NCBI GenBank assembly: GCA_016219185.1
Contig: JACRBZ010000070.1
Span: 1-64,000, forward strand
Length of the DNA: 64,000 nt
Source of the DNA: Deltaproteobacteria bacterium
Lineage (GTDB): Bacteria; Desulfobacterota; Desulfobacteria; Desulfobacterales; Desulfatirhabdiaceae
Direction of reading: 5' to 3'
This document shows, in pieces, positions 2,745 through 10,455 of the stretch. Positions within the stretch are counted from its first letter, which is position 1, and each line of letters starts with the position of its first letter. Both the position numbers and the translations under genes were made by a program. The notes under the pieces were generated by a model. It did no database searches. It saw only the letters and a program-made list of their open reading frames with translations, and was not told the origin of the DNA.

Positions 2745-3416
2745 CTACATTTGTATTTTTTGCGACCAGTGAACCGCGGATTTGACCAATTCGGTGTAAT
2801 GTTTAAGCCCCAGTTTTTCTTTGATGTTTTCCCGGTATGTCCCGATGGTTTTATGGGACAGACGCATCTGGTCCGCAATTTCTTTTGTGGAATAACCGTC
2901 GCCGATCAGGCGGAAAACTTCAAGTTCGCGATTCGTCAGTAAATCCAGAGGCGTTTTTTCTTCCCGGTTTTGTTTCGCAACCAGGCGTTTAAAAACCTTT
3001 TCCTTGACCTTGTCGCTGGCGTATATATTGCCGCCCGCCACATGGCGAATAGCTTTGACCACCATTTCGATGGCTTCCTGTTTCATGATGTATCCGCGCG
3101 CTCCGGCCATAAGTGCCCGCTCGGCATAAAGGGATTCATCGTACATGGAAAGTACCAGAACCGGGAGATCCGGGTGAAGGCGATTGATTTCCTGAACAAT
3201 GTCGATGCCGTCGCTGTCCTTTAAGGATATATCCACGATAACGAGGTCCGGCTGGAGCTTAAGGATTGCATGGTATGCCTTTATGTCCGTTTCTTCACTG
3301 CCGACGACAACAAGGTCTTTTTCTTTGTTGATCAATTCGCTCATGCCGAGACAAAACACCGGGTGATCGTCAATGAGGAGAATCTTGTACGGGGTTCCGG
3401 CGGGTCTGTCACGCAT
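2745..3416 (-). CDS. NarL/FixJ-family response regulator
   Basis: A cytoplasmic transcription factor of 223 residues activated by phosphorylation. The receiver domain (about residues 10-128) has the acidic pair IDD and the phospho-acceptor Asp62 in LVIVD, and a Lys in the KQEA loop. The C-terminal LuxR-type helix-turn-helix (about 155-220) reads LTNRELEVFRLIGDGYSTKEIA...HKTIGTYRENI. It overlaps the end of the upstream histidine kinase gene by 8 bases, so the two form a translationally coupled two-component pair. An imperfect hairpin (ATAGGTT/AACCTAT at 2687-2703) lies downstream without a clear T-run. Targets are unknown. Confidence 0.93.
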   Translation of the reverse strand: MRDRPAGTPYKILLIDDHPVFCLGMSELINKEKDLVVVGSEETDIKAYHAILKLQPDLVIVDISLKDSDGIDIVQEINRLHPDLPVLVLSMYDESLYAERALMAGARGYIMKQEAIEMVVKAIRHVAGGNIYASDKVKEKVFKRLVAKQNREEKTPLDLLTNRELEVFRLIGDGYSTKEIADQMRLSHKTIGTYRENIKEKLGLKHYTELVKSAVHWSQKIQM

Positions 3417-5619
3417 GGATAAGGTTCATTTCGCCTGTTTTGACTTGGTTTTTTATCGAGATCCGGATTGTCGTTCCAAGATCGATACGGGTGTCGATTT
3501 CGATAGTTGCTCCGATTATTTTTGCACGATATTCCATGATTTGCAAACCGATTCCATTAAGGCTTTCATTTCTCACAAATCCGCGCCCGTTATCCGTAAT
3601 TGAAAGATTCAACGCGCCACGGCTTTGAAACAGGTCGATACGGATTTCGCTTGCCCTGGCATGTTTCACCGCGTTTGCGGCGGCTTCCTGGGCGATGAAA
3701 TACAAATGGGTGGCTACGGAATTTTCATTTAAACGGATGTGTTCGTCTCCTTCATACCGGCAAGGGATCCCCGAGGTCGTCGCTGTCCTGGCAGCCAGAT
3801 CTTCCAGGGCTGTAAAAAGTCCATGAGAAACCAGATGAACGGGGCACAGCCCTCTGGCAAGTGCTCTGGCCTTTTCAATGGCATCCGCGATCAATACGAC
3901 GATTTTAGCTGAAAGTTGCGTGTGTCTGGAAGTTTCTTCCTCAAGATTGGACTTCAGGACGGTACCCAGTCCCTGAATGCCGATCAGATGCGGACACAGA
4001 TCATCATGGAGATCCTGGCCGATTTTCTGGCGTTCGCTGTCGGCAATGTCCATGATCTGTTTGCGAAGACGTCTGGCATTGGTAATATCTCTTAAAATGA
4101 TCACGCTGCCGGCCAGTTTTCCATTATGATCACGGTAAGTGGCGCCGCTGATGGTGACCGGTACGGTGGCGCCCTGCTTATTGTACCGGCAGGTTTCGGC
4201 AAATATCAGGGACTCTCCCGAAAGAACGGTTTCTATCATCATCCGGGTCTCGGGCCAGTTTTCTTCGGGCACGAAATGGTCCATCCTGCCGCCGATGCAC
4301 TCTTCCAGGGACCACCCGAATACCCGCGTGAACGCCGGGTTGAAAAAGATGACTTCCCCGTTCATGTTGTAGACGACGATGGGGTCAGGGGCCGCATCCA
4401 TCACCGATCGGTAGCGCCCTTCACTTTCACGGAGCGCGTTTTCCGCGTTTTTGCGGTTTATGATTTCATCGTTTAAATCATTGCTATATCGCTCCAACTG
4501 TTCCATGAATTCATTGAAGTAGGTGGCAAGCTGGCCGATTTCATCATTTGAACTGCGCTCCATTCGCAAGGTGAAATTTGTTTCTCGAACCTGGTGAAAA
4601 TGATTCATCAGTTTTTTAAGCGGGGTGGTAATGGAATCGCTGATTTTAAAGGTCAGGGCCAGGATCAGAACCAGGGAGATCACGGCGGTTAACACCATCA
4701 GGGAGCGTATCGTGGCCAGTGGATGGTAAAATTCATCCTCGTAGCTCGAAGAGGCCACAATCCAGTCATATTCGGGGATGTGATTGTATATTACCAGTTT
4801 TTTTCGGGCCTTGGATTCATCGGGATTCTTCCAGGAATAGATGATTTTACCCATTTTGTCCGCCCACATGGTTTCCAGAAACTCGTTGGACATCGATTTG
4901 TCCTCGAGTACATTCACGCCTTGCAGTTTGGGATGGATGATTGCGATTCCCCGATTGTCGATCACAAAGGAATAGCCGGTCTTGCCGAATCGAAATCTTA
5001 AAATGTTTTCTTTAAAATCATCGACATTGACCAGATCCTTGAATTCTCCCCGGTAGGACGAGACCGAGATTATCCAATCCCAGGGTTCAAACCATTTCAT
5101 ATAAAGCGCTTTGGGGCGCGCTTTTGTTTCGCTCGGGTTTTTCCATTGGTATTCGATGTACCCTTCTTTTTGTTGCATCTGGTGCTTGACGAACTCAAAT
5201 TGAGCCACATTCACATCGATCAGATCCTTTTCAGGATGAACGCGTACGGTACCCGAGCTGTCGATGCAGTAAGTATATCCTGATTTGCCGATGGGCTGAC
5301 TGAGAAACAACGCCGCCGCGGCCTGTTTGGCCATGTCTTCGGTCATTTCACCGTTTTTGAATTTGCTAAAGAAATACTGCGCAATGCCAAGATTCTTTTC
5401 GGCAACGGCACGCAAGTGGTTTTTGATGGATACATCGGCGGAGGTTTTTACCATGTTTAAAATGGCTTCAGTTGTGTTTTTCAGCTCACTTTCAATATTG
5501 ATGGTAAGGCTTTGTTGCACAAAGGAATAAATGAAGATATTCCCTAAAGATAGCGAAACCGTGAACGCGAGGGAGTAATTCAACAATAGTTTATAGCGGA
5601 TAGCAATGTTTCTGAACAT
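3409..5619 (-). CDS. Membrane sensor histidine kinase with tandem Cache, HAMP and PAS domains (NarX/DegS-type core)
   Basis: A 736-residue inner-membrane kinase expected to phosphorylate the NarL-type regulator encoded next. Order: N-terminal transmembrane helix (about 10-32), two similar periplasmic Cache modules (GKSGYTYCID...VHP and GKTGYSFVID...IHP), second transmembrane helix near 310-330, HAMP, PAS (about 415-530), HisKA_3 with His538 in GQDLHDD, and HATPase_c with the NAVKHA and DNGRGF boxes. The frame could start at TTG 5658, but no ribosome site supports that; ATG 5619 gives the usual short tail before the first helix. The two Cache modules look like an internal duplication, suggesting extracellular small-molecule sensing. 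The ligand cannot be inferred. Confidence 0.92.
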   Translation of the reverse strand: MFRNIAIRYKLLLNYSLAFTVSLSLGNIFIYSFVQQSLTINIESELKNTTEAILNMVKTSADVSIKNHLRAVAEKNLGIAQYFFSKFKNGEMTEDMAKQAAAALFLSQPIGKSGYTYCIDSSGTVRVHPEKDLIDVNVAQFEFVKHQMQQKEGYIEYQWKNPSETKARPKALYMKWFEPWDWIISVSSYRGEFKDLVNVDDFKENILRFRFGKTGYSFVIDNRGIAIIHPKLQGVNVLEDKSMSNEFLETMWADKMGKIIYSWKNPDESKARKKLVIYNHIPEYDWIVASSSYEDEFYHPLATIRSLMVLTAVISLVLILALTFKISDSITTPLKKLMNHFHQVRETNFTLRMERSSNDEIGQLATYFNEFMEQLERYSNDLNDEIINRKNAENALRESEGRYRSVMDAAPDPIVVYNMNGEVIFFNPAFTRVFGWSLEECIGGRMDHFVPEENWPETRMMIETVLSGESLIFAETCRYNKQGATVPVTISGATYRDHNGKLAGSVIILRDITNARRLRKQIMDIADSERQKIGQDLHDDLCPHLIGIQGLGTVLKSNLEEETSRHTQLSAKIVVLIADAIEKARALARGLCPVHLVSHGLFTALEDLAARTATTSGIPCRYEGDEHIRLNENSVATHLYFIAQEAAANAVKHARASEIRIDLFQSRGALNLSITDNGRGFVRNESLNGIGLQIMEYRAKIIGATIEIDTRIDLGTTIRISIKNQVKTGEMNLIHA

Positions 5620-5721
5620 ATCAAACCGTCGATCTGAAAAAATACCGGAGAAGTCCAAGAAATGTGAAGCGAGTATAACAGAGAACAGGGGTTTGTCAAA
5701 TAGGGTTGCTTTTTCACATTA

Positions 5722-5763: not shown

Positions 5764-5958
5764 ATGCGCACCAATATCATCATTGACGACGCCTTAATGG
5801 AGCAAGCTCTTGGAATTTCGGGGTTTAAAACGAAAAAGGAAACCGTGGAAGAGGCACTGAAATTACTGATAAAAATAAAAAAACAAGCACAAATAAGAAA
5901 TTTTCGAGGAAAATTGAACTGGGAAGGCAACCTTGAAGATATGAGATCAGACTCATGA
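5764..5958 (+). CDS. vapB: VapB-type antitoxin
   Basis: A 64-residue antitoxin predicted to neutralise the PIN-domain RNase encoded next and to bind its own promoter. The N-terminus (MRTNIIIDDALMEQAL) has the beta-strand plus helix start of the ribbon-helix-helix VapB/DUF2191 family, followed by KTKKETVEEALK. The tail, ending at NLEDMRSDS, is the likely toxin-wrapping segment. The start is ATG 5764, preceded by GAGGAGGAAGC; an in-frame ATG at 5722 is rejected because it lies inside the operator. Its end overlaps vapC by four bases (ATGA). The pair is A+T-richer than the kinases on both sides, suggesting it was acquired. Confidence 0.88.
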   Translation: MRTNIIIDDALMEQALGISGFKTKKETVEEALKLLIKIKKQAQIRNFRGKLNWEGNLEDMRSDS

Positions 5959-6347
5959 TTGTTGCAGACACTTCGGCTTGGATCGATTATTTGCGAGGTG
6001 TGGATGCCCCTCACACGAATGCGCTTGATGATGAACTTCAAAATAATCGAATCATCGCGGGTGACTTGATTATTGCCGAATTTTTACAGGGCTTTAGAAA
6101 TGAAAAGCACTACTTGGAAGCAAAAAACATTATGGATGCCTTGGAGTATCGGGATTTTGTTGGAAGAGATATTGCTTTAAAAGCAGCACAAAATTTTCGA
6201 AGATTAAGAACAAAAGGAATAACAGTCAGAAAGACAATTGATGTCATCATCGCGACATTTTGCATTGAAAATAATTTCCCGTTAATTCATAACGACAGAG
6301 ACTTTGATCCAATGGAGCGCTATTTGGGGCTTAGAATAAGGAAATAA
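5955..6347 (+). CDS. vapC: VapC-type toxin, PIN-domain ribonuclease
   Basis: A 130-residue Mg-dependent endoribonuclease; family members cleave tRNA or rRNA to arrest growth. The PIN acidic residues are all present: Asp5 (VADTS), Glu42 (IAEFLQG), Asp96 (TIDVIIA) and Asp114/Asp116 (HNDRDFD), so the enzyme looks intact. Length is normal for the family. It starts in the ATGA overlap with vapB. Its stop codon is only four bases before the TTG start of a response regulator, so the module sits tightly against the next operon. Actual RNA target unknown. Confidence 0.93.
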   Translation: MIVADTSAWIDYLRGVDAPHTNALDDELQNNRIIAGDLIIAEFLQGFRNEKHYLEAKNIMDALEYRDFVGRDIALKAAQNFRRLRTKGITVRKTIDVIIATFCIENNFPLIHNDRDFDPMERYLGLRIRK

Positions 6348-6351
6348 CTAT

Positions 6352-7074
6352 TTGACGGCTCAGACGGTTCTGATTATCGAAGACGATCCCAACACCGCCA
6401 ATCTCGTGCGGCTCTATCTGGAGCGGGAGGCATTCCGGGTCCTTACTGCCGGAGACGGGAATTCGGGGCTGGCCCTGGCACGGCAGCACGCCCCTGATCT
6501 AGTTATTCTCGATCTGATGCTGCCGCATCTGGATGGCTGGGAGGTTTGCCGGAGACTCAGACAGCATTCGGATGTCCCGGTCATCATGCTGACGGCCAGG
6601 GCCGAGGAGATCGACCGGGTGGCGGGCCTGACCCTGGGGGCGGATGACTACGTGGTCAAACCGTTCAGCCCGCGCGAACTGGTGGCGCGGGTAAAGGCCG
6701 TCCTTCGGCGAGCGCCCCTGATGGGCCCTCCCAGGACGCCATCCCTTTTGATCCATGGCGATGTCCGTCTGGATCTGGAAAAGCGGAGCCTTTCCGTGTC
6801 GGGCAGGCGGGTGTCCCTGACCCCTCATGAATACGCCCTTCTGGAAGCGCTGATGTCCTCCCCCGGGCGCACTTACACCCGTGACGAGCTTCTGGAGCGA
6901 CTCTACCGCAGGGGAGAGGCCGTTGTGGTCGACCGGGTGGTGGATGTACACATGGGTAAATTGCGCCAGAAGATCGAAAAGGACCCCGCAAATCCGCGGC
7001 TGATTCTGACGGTTCGCGGCATCGGCTACCGATTCACCGACGACACCTTTCCCGCGGCCGGCAGCGCGCCATGA
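6352..7074 (+). CDS. OmpR/PhoB-family response regulator (BaeR-like)
   Basis: A 240-residue transcription factor. The receiver domain (1-120) has EDD, phospho-acceptor Asp54 in LVILDLMLP, and Lys in VVKPFSPREL. The winged-helix DNA-binding domain (about 132-232) includes LTPHEYALLEAL and the recognition segment VVDRVVDVHMGKLRQKI. The start is TTG 6352, with AAGGAA about ten bases upstream inside the end of vapC; no better start exists in frame. Its stop overlaps the partner kinase ATG. Family members bind direct repeats with a period near 11 bp; such repeats occur before msrAB downstream, the likely target. Confidence 0.93.
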   Translation: MTAQTVLIIEDDPNTANLVRLYLEREAFRVLTAGDGNSGLALARQHAPDLVILDLMLPHLDGWEVCRRLRQHSDVPVIMLTARAEEIDRVAGLTLGADDYVVKPFSPRELVARVKAVLRRAPLMGPPRTPSLLIHGDVRLDLEKRSLSVSGRRVSLTPHEYALLEALMSSPGRTYTRDELLERLYRRGEAVVVDRVVDVHMGKLRQKIEKDPANPRLILTVRGIGYRFTDDTFPAAGSAP

Positions 7075-8165
7075 ACCGGTATCTAATCGTCAAACTCCTG
7101 TCCATCACCATCGCGGTGGTCCTTTTCGTGGTAGTCATGACGTGGCTTTCCATCGATACGCTGGCTGCAGGCTATTTCGTCACCCTCATGGAGAAATACC
7201 ATATTTCGCCGGAGCCGGCCCATGATATGTTCGTCGGTGCCATTCACCGGTATCTGGTCTGGGTGTTTTTGGGGGCCGTCATCCTGGCAGCGGCATTGAG
7301 CTATTTGATGATGCGGAAAGTCCTTGGCCCCTTGACCCGCATGACCGCCATTACCCAAGACATTGCAGCCGGTGATTTTTCGGTCCGTGTGCCGCCGGGA
7401 AGCGCCGATGAAGTGGGTCGCCTGGCAAAGGCCTTTAACCACATGGCGGAAAACCTGGAAAAACTTGAAAAACTGCGCCGAAACCTCATGATCGATGTGG
7501 CCCACGAACTGCGGACCCCCCTGACCAATATCCGCGGATACCTGGAAGCCCTCATCGACCAGGTGGTGCCGCCGACGACCCAAACCTTCACCCTGCTCAT
7601 GAATGAGACCCTGCGCCTGGCAAGCCTGGTTGAGGATGTGCTTGACTTGGCCCGGGCCGACGCGGCCCGTGGAAAACTCGATCTTGAACCGGTCGATGTC
7701 AAAGACATCCTGAGCGATGTATTGACCGGCTTTGACGCACAGTTCCAACAAAAGAACATCGCCTTCCATCTGCAGGCACCCCCGCACCCCGTGGTAATCC
7801 CGGCGGATCGGGGACGGTTGATGCGCGTGCTGCGGAACCTGGCGGACAATACCGCCCGTTATGCGCCTACCGGCTGCAACGTGTCCTTTTGTTTGACGGC
7901 AGCGCCGGACGCGGCCAGGATCGAAATCGTCAATCCGGCGGGTGGCGTGACAGCCGGGGATTTGCCCTTTCTCTTCGAGCGCTTTTACCGGGGTGAAAAA
8001 TCCCGTTCCCGCGAACACGGCGGTGCCGGGATCGGCCTTTCCATTGTCAAAGAACTCGTGGAAGCACATGGGGGATCGGTGGGCGCATCTCTATCCGAAG
8101 ACCTTATCCACATTTCCGTGACCCTGCCCACGGCTCAAGACAGAAACGAAGCTGACCCGTCCTGA
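7071..8165 (+). CDS. Sensor histidine kinase (BaeS-like)
   Basis: A 364-residue inner-membrane kinase, partner of the OmpR-type regulator with which it overlaps by four bases (ATGA). Transmembrane helices lie near residues 7-28 and 60-82, enclosing only a short periplasmic loop, typical of kinases that sense envelope state rather than bind a soluble ligand. HAMP follows (about 83-135), then HisKA with His145 in VAHELRTPLTNI, and HATPase_c with NLADNTARYA, ERFYRGEKSRSREHGGAG and GIGLSIVKELV. The gene is followed after 138 bases by exported MsrAB. Together these suggest a redox or protein-damage response in the envelope (inference). Confidence 0.93.
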   Translation: MNRYLIVKLLSITIAVVLFVVVMTWLSIDTLAAGYFVTLMEKYHISPEPAHDMFVGAIHRYLVWVFLGAVILAAALSYLMMRKVLGPLTRMTAITQDIAAGDFSVRVPPGSADEVGRLAKAFNHMAENLEKLEKLRRNLMIDVAHELRTPLTNIRGYLEALIDQVVPPTTQTFTLLMNETLRLASLVEDVLDLARADAARGKLDLEPVDVKDILSDVLTGFDAQFQQKNIAFHLQAPPHPVVIPADRGRLMRVLRNLADNTARYAPTGCNVSFCLTAAPDAARIEIVNPAGGVTAGDLPFLFERFYRGEKSRSREHGGAGIGLSIVKELVEAHGGSVGASLSEDLIHISVTLPTAQDRNEADPS

Positions 8166-8181
8166 CATTCCCCGTTTATTG

Positions 8182-8214
8182 GATTCTTGTTCGAATCTTT
8201 ACCGAATCTTTATA
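8182..8214. promoter_or_regulatory. Tandem 11-bp repeats upstream of msrAB, candidate response-regulator site
   Basis: CGAATCTTTAC (8193-8203) and CGAATCTTTAT (8204-8214) are adjacent and identical at 10 of 11 positions; GGATTCTTGTT (8182-8192) is a degenerate third unit in phase. A possible promoter follows: TATACA at 8212-8217, 17 bases, then TATATT at 8235-8240. An OmpR-family dimer binding beside the -35 would activate. The regulator is inferred to be the product of 6352-7074. Confidence 0.5.
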
Positions 8215-8303
8215 CATTTGCTCGATTTCAGACTTATATTCAGGCCAAGATGAAAGTGAAGTAATAAATTGTTCATCTTCAACCTATTTCGAGGAGGTGT
8301 CTC

Positions 8304-9482
8304 ATGAAATATCTGCTACTGCTTTTTGTAATTTCGGTTATCGCCTTTATTGCCCTTGGACGGGTCGCAGCTCAGAATAACGCAGCCGAAACGCCCGTGT
8401 TGGAGAAGGGAATTCAAACCAAAACAGCCGTATTCGCCGGGGGGTGCTTTTGGTGCACGGAATCGGATTTTGAAAAGGTTCCGGGCGTTCTGGACGCTGT
8501 TTCGGGCTATACCGGCGGCACCGTTGCCAATCCCACCTACGAGCAGACGTCGGCAGGCGGCACCGGACATGTGGAGGCCGTTCAGGTCATTTATGATCCT
8601 GCAAGGGTCACCTATGAACAATTGCTGAATGCTTTCTGGCGCCATGTGGACCCCACGGATGCCGGAGGCCAGTTCGTGGACAGGGGATACCAATACCGTA
8701 GCGTTATTTTCTATGCCGATGATGAACAGCGGCGGGAAGCCGAGGCATCCAGGGCAGCCCTTACGGCATCGGGTCAGTTCGACCGTCCCATTGTCACGGA
8801 AATCCGGCCCCTGGGTCCGTTTTACAAGGCCGAGGACTACCATCAGGATTATTACAAGAAAAACCCCGTCCGGTATCATTATTACCGCTGGCATTCCGGA
8901 AGGGATCAATTTCTGACCGACGCCTGGAAGGTGGATAAATTCGCAGCATATACGGAGACGGAGCTGCAAAAGATGAAAACGACAACAAACGAAAAGGGAA
9001 CCGCCAGCATGGGTGATCCCATGGCCTCGAAGACTGAACCGATGACGTACAAGGTTCCGGACGATGCCACCCTGCGCCGTGAGCTGACCCCGATGCAATA
9101 TGAAGTGGCGCGCCGGAACGGTACCGAACCGGCGTTTCAAAACGAATACTGGAACAACCACGAATCCGGCATCTATGTGGACATCGTGTCCGGTGAACCT
9201 GTGTTCAGCTCCACCGATAAATTCGATTCCGGGACCGGATGGCCCAGCTTCACCCGCCCCCTGTCACCTGAAAATATCGTGGAAAAAACCGACAAAAGCT
9301 TTTTCATGACGCGCACCGAAGTGCGCAGCAAACATGCGGATTCCCACCTGGGGCACGTCTTCAAGGACGGCCCGGCGCCCACGGGCCTGCGGTATTGCAT
9401 CAACTCCGCGGCACTGCGCTTTATCCCCAGGGCGGATCTGGAGAAAGAGGGGTATGGTCAATACCTCGGCCTTTTTATGTGA
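8304..9482 (+). CDS. msrAB: Exported bifunctional methionine sulfoxide reductase MsrA-MsrB
   Basis: Repairs oxidised methionine: the MsrA domain reduces the S sulfoxide and MsrB the R form. The 392-residue protein starts with a signal peptide (hydrophobic 3-20, then VAAQNN), so it acts outside the cytoplasm. MsrA (about 40-200) has the catalytic Cys48 in GCFWC and [16 protein letters not shown]. MsrB (about 255-385) has GTGWPSF, SHLGHVF and catalytic Cys365 in [11 protein letters not shown]. The usual zinc-binding CxxC pairs of MsrB are absent, as in the MsrAB domain of neisserial PilB. A strong ribosome site (GGAGGTG) precedes ATG 8304. In an anaerobe it probably protects envelope proteins during oxygen exposure. 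Confidence 0.96.
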
Positions 9483-9675: not shown

Positions 9676-10455
9676 ATGACTGATCTGATGCCGGCAATCT
9701 TCCTCGGACACGGCAATCCGATGAATGCGATATCGAAGAATGTTTACACCGATGGATGGGCTTCCATCGGCAAATCGATTCCGCGTCCAAGGGCCGTACT
9801 GGCCGTTTCCGCCCACTGGTATGTACCAGGCTGCGCCGTAACGGCAAGCCTTACCCCGGATACCATACACGATTTTGGCGGCTTTCCGAAAGAGCTTTAT
9901 CAGATTGAATATCCGGCACCCGGCAGTCCCGAACTTGCCCGGCGTGTCAGGGAGCTGCTGTCCCCGGTGATTGTGGGACTTGATGAAAGCCGGGGACTCG
10001 ATCACGGAACATGGGCGGTGCTGACCCACGTCTTTCCGGATGCGGATATCCCCATCGTTCAGCTCAGCATTGATAGAACACAGCCGCCGCAATTCCATTA
10101 TGAAATCGGGAAACGGCTTTCGTCGCTACGGGAAGAAGGTGTTTTGGTGATCGGCAGCGGCAATCTCGTTCATAATCTGTCTGTCTATGCATGGGGCAGG
10201 TCCGGGGTTCCCCCTTTTGACTGGGCGTTAAGATTCGAGAAAAACGTGCGGGAGTTGATGCTCAAGGGCGAAGACGCTCGGGTTGTGGCTTACGGGGGGC
10301 TCGGCCCTGATGCGATGCTGTCCGTCCCCACGCCGGACCATTACCTGCCGCTGCTTTATGTACTGGGCCTTCGGAAAAAAAATGAAGAGGTCCGTTTTCC
10401 GATTCAAGGCATTGATGGCGGCTCGGTTTCCATGCTGGCTGTCCAGATAGGCTGA
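9676..10455 (+). CDS. ygiD: LigB-family extradiol dioxygenase (YgiD/4,5-DOPA dioxygenase-like)
   Basis: A 259-residue cytoplasmic protein of the class III extradiol ring-cleavage family, closest in motifs to E. coli YgiD and plant DODA. Metal-ligand regions are present: LGHGNPMN near residue 12, VSAHWY near 47, and GSGNLVHNL near 157; DHGTWAVL is the family's catalytic-side motif. Length is normal. GAGGAGAG precedes ATG 9676. The physiological substrate of bacterial YgiD is uncertain, and an O2-using enzyme in an apparently anaerobic organism points to oxygen or aromatic detoxification rather than growth (inference). It has its own promoter region with nested palindromes. Confidence 0.88.
   Translation: MTDLMPAIFLGHGNPMNAISKNVYTDGWASIGKSIPRPRAVLAVSAHWYVPGCAVTASLTPDTIHDFGGFPKELYQIEYPAPGSPELARRVRELLSPVIVGLDESRGLDHGTWAVLTHVFPDADIPIVQLSIDRTQPPQFHYEIGKRLSSLREEGVLVIGSGNLVHNLSVYAWGRSGVPPFDWALRFEKNVRELMLKGEDARVVAYGGLGPDAMLSVPTPDHYLPLLYVLGLRKKNEEVRFPIQGIDGGSVSMLAVQIG

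What the first reader, a model, noticed from the sequence alone, without database searches (positions are those of the whole stretch)
8182..8240. Phased 11-bp repeats link the BaeRS-like pair to msrAB
Two adjacent near-identical 11-bp units, with a third degenerate one in phase, abut a plausible promoter of exported MsrAB, directly downstream of an OmpR-type two-component system. The 11-bp period matches tandem binding by this regulator family. It suggests a circuit sensing envelope oxidation, parallel to but distinct from the YedWV-MsrPQ type.
Basis: partly seen in the sequence, partly recalled or inferred. Interest (0 to 1): 0.55.

Follow-up and report, generated by a model that had tools for sequence, protein, structure and literature searches.

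The report
Four-repeat switch for methionine-repair gene
A short, evenly spaced DNA repeat in front of an exported protein-repair gene is most likely the docking site of the two-component regulator encoded next door, because the same site, regulator and repair genes recur together in many related bacteria.

Summary
The repeat is real: 11-bp units at 8182/8193/8204, the best phased triple in the 64-kb window, reached by 0 of 4000 shuffles. The repeat follows the orthologous kinase's stop codon in 40 of 68 test loci (1 of 1360 shuffles, 0 of 68 coding controls). In 9 of 19 hand-picked genomes, mostly without an msr gene beside the kinase, 11 of 40 pattern sites lie just upstream of distant msr genes (0.005 expected). 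Aligned sites show four 11-bp units (core CTTTA), 8 bp, then a -10 box at fixed offset 52 (56 of 70); here 8183-8226 and TATATT 8235-8240. The regulator probably binds as tandem dimers and activates exported MsrAB. The kinase has only a helical-hairpin sensor; Met40 is present in 50 of 50 msr-linked copies and missing in one clade without linked msr (plus one outlier), so methionine oxidation is a plausible but unproven signal. "BaeRS-like" does not hold. Parallels: HprSR-MsrPQ, ModRS-MsrAB, OrhKR. A new variant of a known kind; no binding experiment. Thirteen of 68 loci remain without a site found for an msr gene.

The parts
6352..7074 (+). OmpR/PhoB-type response regulator (receiver + winged helix; TTG start)
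   Evidence: Pfam Response_reg and Trans_reg_C; no NCBIfam cut-off reached among the 25 families listed of 105
7071..8165 (+). Sensor histidine kinase: helical-hairpin sensor (about residues 2-99), HAMP, HisKA (His145), HATPase
   Evidence: Pfam; alignment; AlphaFold2 model, mean pLDDT 84.7
8183..8226 (+). Predicted operator: four 11-bp direct-repeat units (8183, 8194, 8205, 8216), two strong (8194, 8205) and two degenerate
8235..8240 (+). Predicted -10 box TATATT, at offset 52 from unit 1
8291..8299 (+). Likely ribosome-binding site (gaggaggtg)
   Evidence: sequence
8304..9482 (+). MsrAB fusion (PMSR + SelR) with hydrophobic, signal-like N terminus; the only MsrAB match in this genome at E <= 1e-10

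Best explanation
The two-component pair at 6352-8165 controls the exported methionine sulfoxide reductase MsrAB. When the kinase is activated, the phosphorylated regulator binds head to tail, probably as two dimers, to four 11-bp direct repeats (8183-8226). This places it over the -35 region, 8 bp upstream of the -10 box (8235-8240), and it recruits RNA polymerase (PhoB-type, class II activation). Shown by comparison: the array, its fixed distance to the -10 box, and the co-occurrence of pair, array and msr genes, next to each other and at a distance. Inferred: physical binding, activation rather than repression, and the signal. The most likely signal is oxidation of the envelope, read by the bare helical hairpin of the kinase, possibly at Met40.
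For: Repeat above chance and single in the genome. Orthologous pair plus msrAB plus repeat in L002, L003, L005 and, weaker, L027, and in G135, G167 and others; in G281 and G355 msr genes follow a first gene. Test loci outside the training set: site of at least 18 bits in the 330 bp around and after the kinase stop in 40 of 68, versus 1 of 1360 shuffles and 0 of 68 stretches inside the kinase gene. Exact pattern ATCTTTACNNNATCTTTAC in 395 genomes: 4 of the 10 non-own kinase-positive genomes and 2 of the 384 others. At a distance: 11 of 40 pattern sites in 19 genomes lie within 400 bp upstream of an msr match, same strand; 0.005 expected; the reversed control pattern has 8 sites in those genomes. 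msrAB loci without the adjacent pair: 2 of 75 rows carry the site (L004, L051), and both genomes have the kinase elsewhere, as only 3 of 49 searched genomes do. TAnnnT at offset 52 in 56 of 70 non-duplicate sites; the next commonest offset has 12 of 73 rows. CTTTA is the commonest core in all four units.
Against: No experiment. 27 of 68 test loci lack a site of 15 bits or more beside the kinase. Of these, 5 have it before an msr gene nearby (L166, L238, L239, L240, L249) and 9 before an msr gene elsewhere; 13 remain (L106, L165, L225, L229, L230, L235, L244, L246, L265, L266, L275, L279, L282). L265 and L266 reach 13.3 bits; in L279 and L225 the msr match begins within 12 bp of the kinase stop, so no promoter fits between; G285 (L106) has the kinase but no pattern site at all. 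One clade of the kinase family has the repeat before other genes, a B12-binding radical-SAM gene in L110 and L112. A second site lies before a sigma factor gene in G135 and a DUF7482 gene in G400. Five same-genus genomes lack the kinase at E <= 1e-75, so the circuit is patchy here.
Confidence: 0.87

Rival explanations
1. The circuit is as described, but the kinase senses something other than methionine or envelope oxidation (oxygen, a metal, membrane state, a quinone), and msrAB is one of its outputs.
For: No sensor domain. Met40 loss maps to one clade plus one long-branch row, so the Met40-msr association is 1-2 events. Other hairpin residues (W25, Y35, L39, F54, H59, W64) are invariant in the 34-row alignment in which Met40 is only nearly so. 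One clade has another target.
Against: In the Met40-bearing loci examined, the genes behind the site that I could name are msr genes for the most part, or stand with them: a sulfite-oxidase-fold Tat-type protein and msrB in G355, a Met-rich secreted protein before msrAB in G281. HprS senses reactive chlorine by two periplasmic Met (PMC10151825, passage).
Confidence: 0.45
2. The repeat is the site of a different OmpR-type regulator encoded elsewhere, and its place beside this pair is coincidence.
For: OmpR-type regulators commonly use 10-11-bp direct repeats (recalled), so the pattern alone does not name the protein.
Against: The site tracks presence of this kinase across genomes, at a distance as well.
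Confidence: 0.06
3. The regulator represses msrAB by covering the promoter, with the signal lifting repression.
For: The array overlaps the -35 region.
Against: The consensus has no TTGACA-like -35 where one would be expected, and the -10 distance is fixed, as in activator-dependent promoters (inference). In the parallel ModRS system, cells without the regulator ModR had reduced msrAB, trx and ccdA expression, while loss of the kinase raised it (PMC9239216, passage).
Confidence: 0.15
4. The repeat is a chance or microsatellite feature.
For: One genome without the kinase (G374) has the same unit as a satellite with five overlapping pattern matches, and another (G107) has three units in a row.
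Against: Shuffles, fixed -10 offset and conservation in otherwise diverged intergenic DNA.
Confidence: 0.01

Closest known systems
HprSR (YedVW) - MsrPQ, Escherichia coli
   Same: OmpR-type pair controlling a periplasmic methionine sulfoxide reductase; the kinase reads reactive chlorine through two periplasmic Met (PMC10151825, passages read).
   Different: Here the enzyme is an exported MsrAB fusion, not MsrPQ. The regulator scores 151 against the HprR cut-off of 353. The operator is a four-unit direct repeat, whereas HprR is recalled to use an inverted repeat. The sensor is a bare hairpin.
ModRS - MsrAB, Fusobacterium nucleatum
   Same: A linked two-component pair controls a fused MsrAB in an anaerobe and is induced by H2O2 (PMC9239216, abstract and passages read).
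   Different: ModRS lies downstream of msrAB with trx and ccdA upstream, and steers a large regulon. No operator or sensor residue was named in the passages I read. Homology to ModRS was not tested here.
OrhK/OrhR - C3566/C3567, uropathogenic E. coli
   Same: A pair that directly activates an Msr system; a Met-rich peptide gene lies beside it (PMC8550376, passages read), like the Met-rich secreted protein in G281.
   Different: The target is MsrPQ-like, on a pathogenicity island, and the kinase has a periplasmic domain.
PhoB and the pho box (recalled)
   Same: 11-bp direct repeats bound head to tail, replacing the -35 element upstream of a -10 box.
   Different: Unit AATCTTTACC instead of the CTGTCAT type; four units; other signal and targets. 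PhoB equivalog cut-off not reached (227 of 296 bits).

Membership tests
OmpR/PhoB-type response regulators | Receiver domain plus C-terminal winged helix | tested here: met
   PF00072 and PF00486, both full length
OmpR/PhoB-type response regulators | Tandem direct-repeat operator | tested here: met
   Four 11-bp units with fixed -10 distance in 56 of 70 sites; binding itself not tested
BaeSR envelope-stress system | BaeR / BaeS equivalog scores | tested here: not met
   BaeR 211 of 380 bits; BaeS 234 of 603 bits, matching only from residue 64 on
BaeSR envelope-stress system | Folded periplasmic sensor domain | tested here: not met
   Model: helix 2-43, turn 44-47, helix 48-99; that BaeS has such a domain is recalled
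HprSR (YedVW) | HprR equivalog | tested here: not met
   151 of 353 bits
HprSR (YedVW) | MsrP/MsrQ as linked target | tested here: not met
   Linked target is MsrAB; of the loci examined, a sulfite-oxidase-fold protein (MsrP model 48 of 207 bits) was seen as linked target in G355 only; the others were not scanned for MsrP
HprSR (YedVW) | Sensing by periplasmic Met | not testable with these tools
   Met40 in 67 and Met53 in 58 of 78 non-duplicate kinases; function needs mutants
ModRS | Orthology to Fusobacterium ModR/ModS | not tested
   Sequence not at hand; gene order differs
MsrAB fusion | MsrA and MsrB domains in one exported chain | tested here: met
   PMSR 41-192, SelR 261-375; export judged from the N terminus only

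The most novel reading that the evidence does not exclude
A family of two-component systems spread through the window's phylum is devoted to repair of oxidised methionine outside the cytoplasm. The kinase has about the smallest possible sensor, a membrane hairpin with a four-residue turn whose near-tip methionine (Met40) is itself the oxidised signal and is reset by the MsrAB it induces. The whole regulon can be read from one rigid promoter code: four 11-bp units, 8 bp, -10 box.
Probability: 0.3. Interest if true: 0.75.

Novelty: new variant of a known kind. Interest (0 to 1): 0.6.

Why it matters
How anaerobes such as sulfate reducers notice and mend oxidative damage in the cell envelope is, to my recollection, little described; the searches, judged from titles and abstract starts, listed no paper on a two-component system for msr genes in this phylum. 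The result gives a regulator, a kinase, a base-exact promoter code and a target list that can be read off a genome, and one candidate sensing residue that a single mutant would test.

Tried and rejected
BaeRS membership: rejected on NCBIfam scores and sensor shape. HprSR membership: rejected. Chance repeat: rejected. Regulon in the own genome beyond msrAB: the pattern with up to 3 mismatches gave 27 sites against 23 control sites, so nothing beyond the msrAB site could be claimed. Met40 as proof of methionine sensing: held back, because the tree needs only two changes. A general msrAB promoter element independent of the pair: rejected. More distant two-component pairs next to msrAB (L041, L044, L054 upstream; regulators 39-45%, kinases 27-29% identical): no comparable repeat was reported there, so they were set aside as other systems.

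Rows and limits. The 22-bp matrix was trained on 11 sites from 12 loci; those and 3 duplicate loci (L234, L237, L241, the same stretches as in L005, L003, L027) were left out of the 68 test loci. still holds the 3 duplicates (58 of 73 sites at offset 52); removes them (56 of 70). The window's own row counts as offset 41 there, because it was anchored on its best unit, one unit downstream. 'msr-linked' means an msr match within 2.6 kb of the kinase stop on either strand; genomes with the site before a distant msr gene count as unlinked. In the control of 75 msrAB rows, L012 was dropped for lack of upstream DNA and L030 was sliced wrongly (no upstream DNA held), so 74 rows are valid. Of the 76 msrAB loci without the adjacent pair, 50 (49 genomes) were searched for the kinase: the first 47 in list order plus L065, L072 and L079 added by hand. 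Script 63 prints a Fisher value for a looser table; the plain reading is that both motif-bearing loci fall among 3 of 49 genomes (3/1176). Of 66 kinase matches in the G063 class, 36 were fetched, picked by hand down the score list, in addition to four genomes already fetched; of the 25 in the own class all 24 others were fetched. The 19 genomes were hand-picked: mostly genomes whose kinase has no msr gene beside it; G285 has msr matches 1.6-3.5 kb away, G063 and G287 are Met40-less, and G527 and G702 gave no msr match at E <= 1e-25, so they could not be tested.

Full report
What is there. A response regulator (6352-7074), a histidine kinase (7071-8165) and an exported-looking MsrAB fusion (8304-9482) follow one another on the + strand. 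The 138-bp gap between kinase and msrAB holds GATTCTTGTTC, GAATCTTTACC and GAATCTTTATA at 8182, 8193 and 8204. This is the best 11-bp-phased triple in the window and exceeds all 4000 shuffles of the gap. The strong pair occurs once in the genome, and the genome has one MsrAB match at E <= 1e-10.

Same pair, same gap. Of 80 MsrAB loci fetched from genome contigs, four have an orthologous regulator and kinase directly upstream (L002, L003, L005, L027). In the first three the otherwise diverged gap keeps AATCTTTAC-type units at 11-bp spacing; L027 keeps a weaker version. Searching the kinase in whole genomes found it in 11 of 395 genomes across the phylum (own included), 8 of 55 in one class, 25 of 340 in the own class (own included) and 63 of 195 in another class; the named relatives belong to Thermodesulfobacteriota (Desulfobacterota) by their records. 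Fetched loci often show the repeat just after the kinase stop codon. With a matrix trained on the first 11 sites, 40 of 68 further loci carry a site of 18 bits or more there, against 1 of 1360 shuffles and 0 of 68 stretches inside the kinase gene. Of the 27 loci below 15 bits, 5 have the site before an msr gene nearby, 9 before an msr gene elsewhere in the genome, and 13 are unexplained.

Tests at a distance. If the repeat is this regulator's site, it should stay with msr genes when the pair moves away. In G267 and G307 the pair lies on one contig and msrAB on another, and the only zero-mismatch pattern site of each genome lies 88 bp upstream of the start of the msrAB match. In 19 hand-picked genomes, mostly without an msr gene beside the kinase, 11 of 40 pattern sites lie 88-271 bp upstream of an msr match on the same strand, in 9 genomes; 0.005 are expected within 400 bp. 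The reversed control pattern has 8 sites there in all. No such site was found in G522, G738, G571, G782, G430, G285, G063 and G287; G527 and G702 gave no msr match to test. Conversely, among msrAB loci without the adjacent pair only L004 and L051 have the site (2 of 75 rows, 74 valid), both with the -10 box at offset 52, and both genomes encode the kinase elsewhere, which only 3 of 49 searched genomes do. The third, L047, appears to be a second msrAB copy: the kinase match of its genome has the same contig coordinates and score as that of G664, whose msrAB (L228) lies beside the pair and has the site. The exact 16-base pattern occurs in 4 of the 10 other kinase-positive genomes and in 2 of the 384 remaining genomes of the phylum sample; of these two, G374 has it as a satellite and G107 as three units in a row about 500 bp before a chemoreceptor-like ORF.

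Promoter code. Aligned on unit 1, a TAnnnT hexamer begins at offset 52 in 58 of 73 sites (56 of 70 without duplicates); the next commonest offset has 12 and the mean is 2. In the 56 sites the commonest base at each position of the core C-T-T-T-A is that base in all four units: 92-100% in units 1 and 2, 60-98% in unit 3 and 71-98% in unit 4. So the site is four 11-bp units, 8 bp, -10 box, with no TTGACA-like consensus at the -35 place. In the window this is 8183-8226 and TATATT 8235-8240; units 2 and 3 are the strong ones. By established knowledge of the PhoB type (recalled), such an array holds two regulator dimers head to tail and replaces the -35 contact. Activation is therefore the likelier mode; it is inferred.

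Targets. Besides msrAB fusions these sites precede separate msrB and msrA genes (G867, G848, G760, G834), a selenocysteine MsrA (G424), a sulfite-oxidase-fold protein and an MsrB, both with Tat-like signals, in G355, and a small secreted-looking Met-rich protein (14 Met in 93 residues after the putative signal) followed by msrAB in G281. In G135 and G400 a second site precedes a sigma factor gene and a DUF7482 protein respectively, upstream of the regulator.

Sensor. The AlphaFold2 model (mean pLDDT 84.7) shows helix 2-43, a turn at 44-47 and helix 48-99: no periplasmic domain. Met40 lies near the end of the first helix and Met53 near the start of the second. Met40 is present in 50 of 50 non-duplicate msr-linked kinases with a complete N terminus and in 17 of 28 unlinked ones; Met53 in 45 of 50 and 13 of 28. 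All eleven kinases without Met40 are unlinked, but they form one clade plus a long-branch row, so this is suggestive only. In the Met40-less genomes G063 and G287 the site precedes a B12-binding radical-SAM gene, and no pattern site lies near their msr matches. HprS of E. coli senses reactive chlorine through two periplasmic Met (PMC10151825, passage), which makes the idea reasonable.

Known kinds. HprSR-MsrPQ, ModRS-MsrAB (PMC9239216, abstract and passages) and OrhKR (PMC8550376, abstract and passages) are the nearest systems: a two-component pair for Msr genes is a known kind. The pair here reaches none of the BaeR, BaeS, HprR or PhoB equivalog cut-offs. The full-text searches listed no paper on such a pair in this phylum, judged from titles and abstract starts; subscription papers are largely outside that library. 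Verdict: real, well conserved, a new variant of a known kind; binding, sign of control and signal remain to be shown.

Noticed in passing
window 5764-6347: A VapBC-like pair (small 64-aa antitoxin-like ORF and a PIN-domain gene) sits directly upstream of the regulator; the PIN gene ends 4 bp before the regulator's start. It may have been inserted between the pair and its own promoter.
   Followed up: partly
own genus (G295, G434, G471, G513, G733): Five same-genus genomes lack the kinase at E <= 1e-75, so the circuit may have come by transfer or been lost repeatedly.
   Followed up: no
L110, L112, L272, L277, L281: A Met40-less kinase clade keeps the two strong repeat units; in L110 and L112 they precede a B12-binding radical-SAM gene, and by eye a -10-like hexamer sits at offset 43 instead of 52.
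   Followed up: partly
G821 (L252, L274) and G843 (L266, L276): Two genomes carry both kinds of kinase: a Met40 copy with msr beside it and a Met40-less copy without.
   Followed up: no
L164:5700-6749: MsrA with selenocysteine: in-frame TGA at the place of the catalytic Cys, reading ALGUFWG. L109 may have the same (a reading frame ends at ATFALG); not checked.
   Followed up: partly
L109:7068-8427: Sulfite-oxidase-fold protein (Oxidored_molyb) and an MsrB, both with Tat-like signals, each behind its own copy of the array; an MsrA-like match follows.
   Followed up: partly
L111:8971-9324 and L164:6990-7475: Small secreted-looking Met-rich proteins without Pfam match (14 Met in 93 and 16 Met in 132 residues after the putative signal), near or under the array; they recall the scavenger MrpX (MrpX from the passage).
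   Followed up: partly
L168:4458-5135 and L162:7682-8065: A second array upstream of the regulator precedes a sigma-70-family factor in one genome and a DUF7482 protein in another.
   Followed up: no
L109 (regulator region 9768-10440): The regulator of G355 matches in two overlapping pieces, which suggests a frameshift or assembly error.
   Followed up: no
window 2745-5658 (- strand): A second two-component pair of another type: Cache-HAMP-PAS kinase with HisKA_3 and, from its sequence only, a LuxR/NarL-looking regulator.
   Followed up: no
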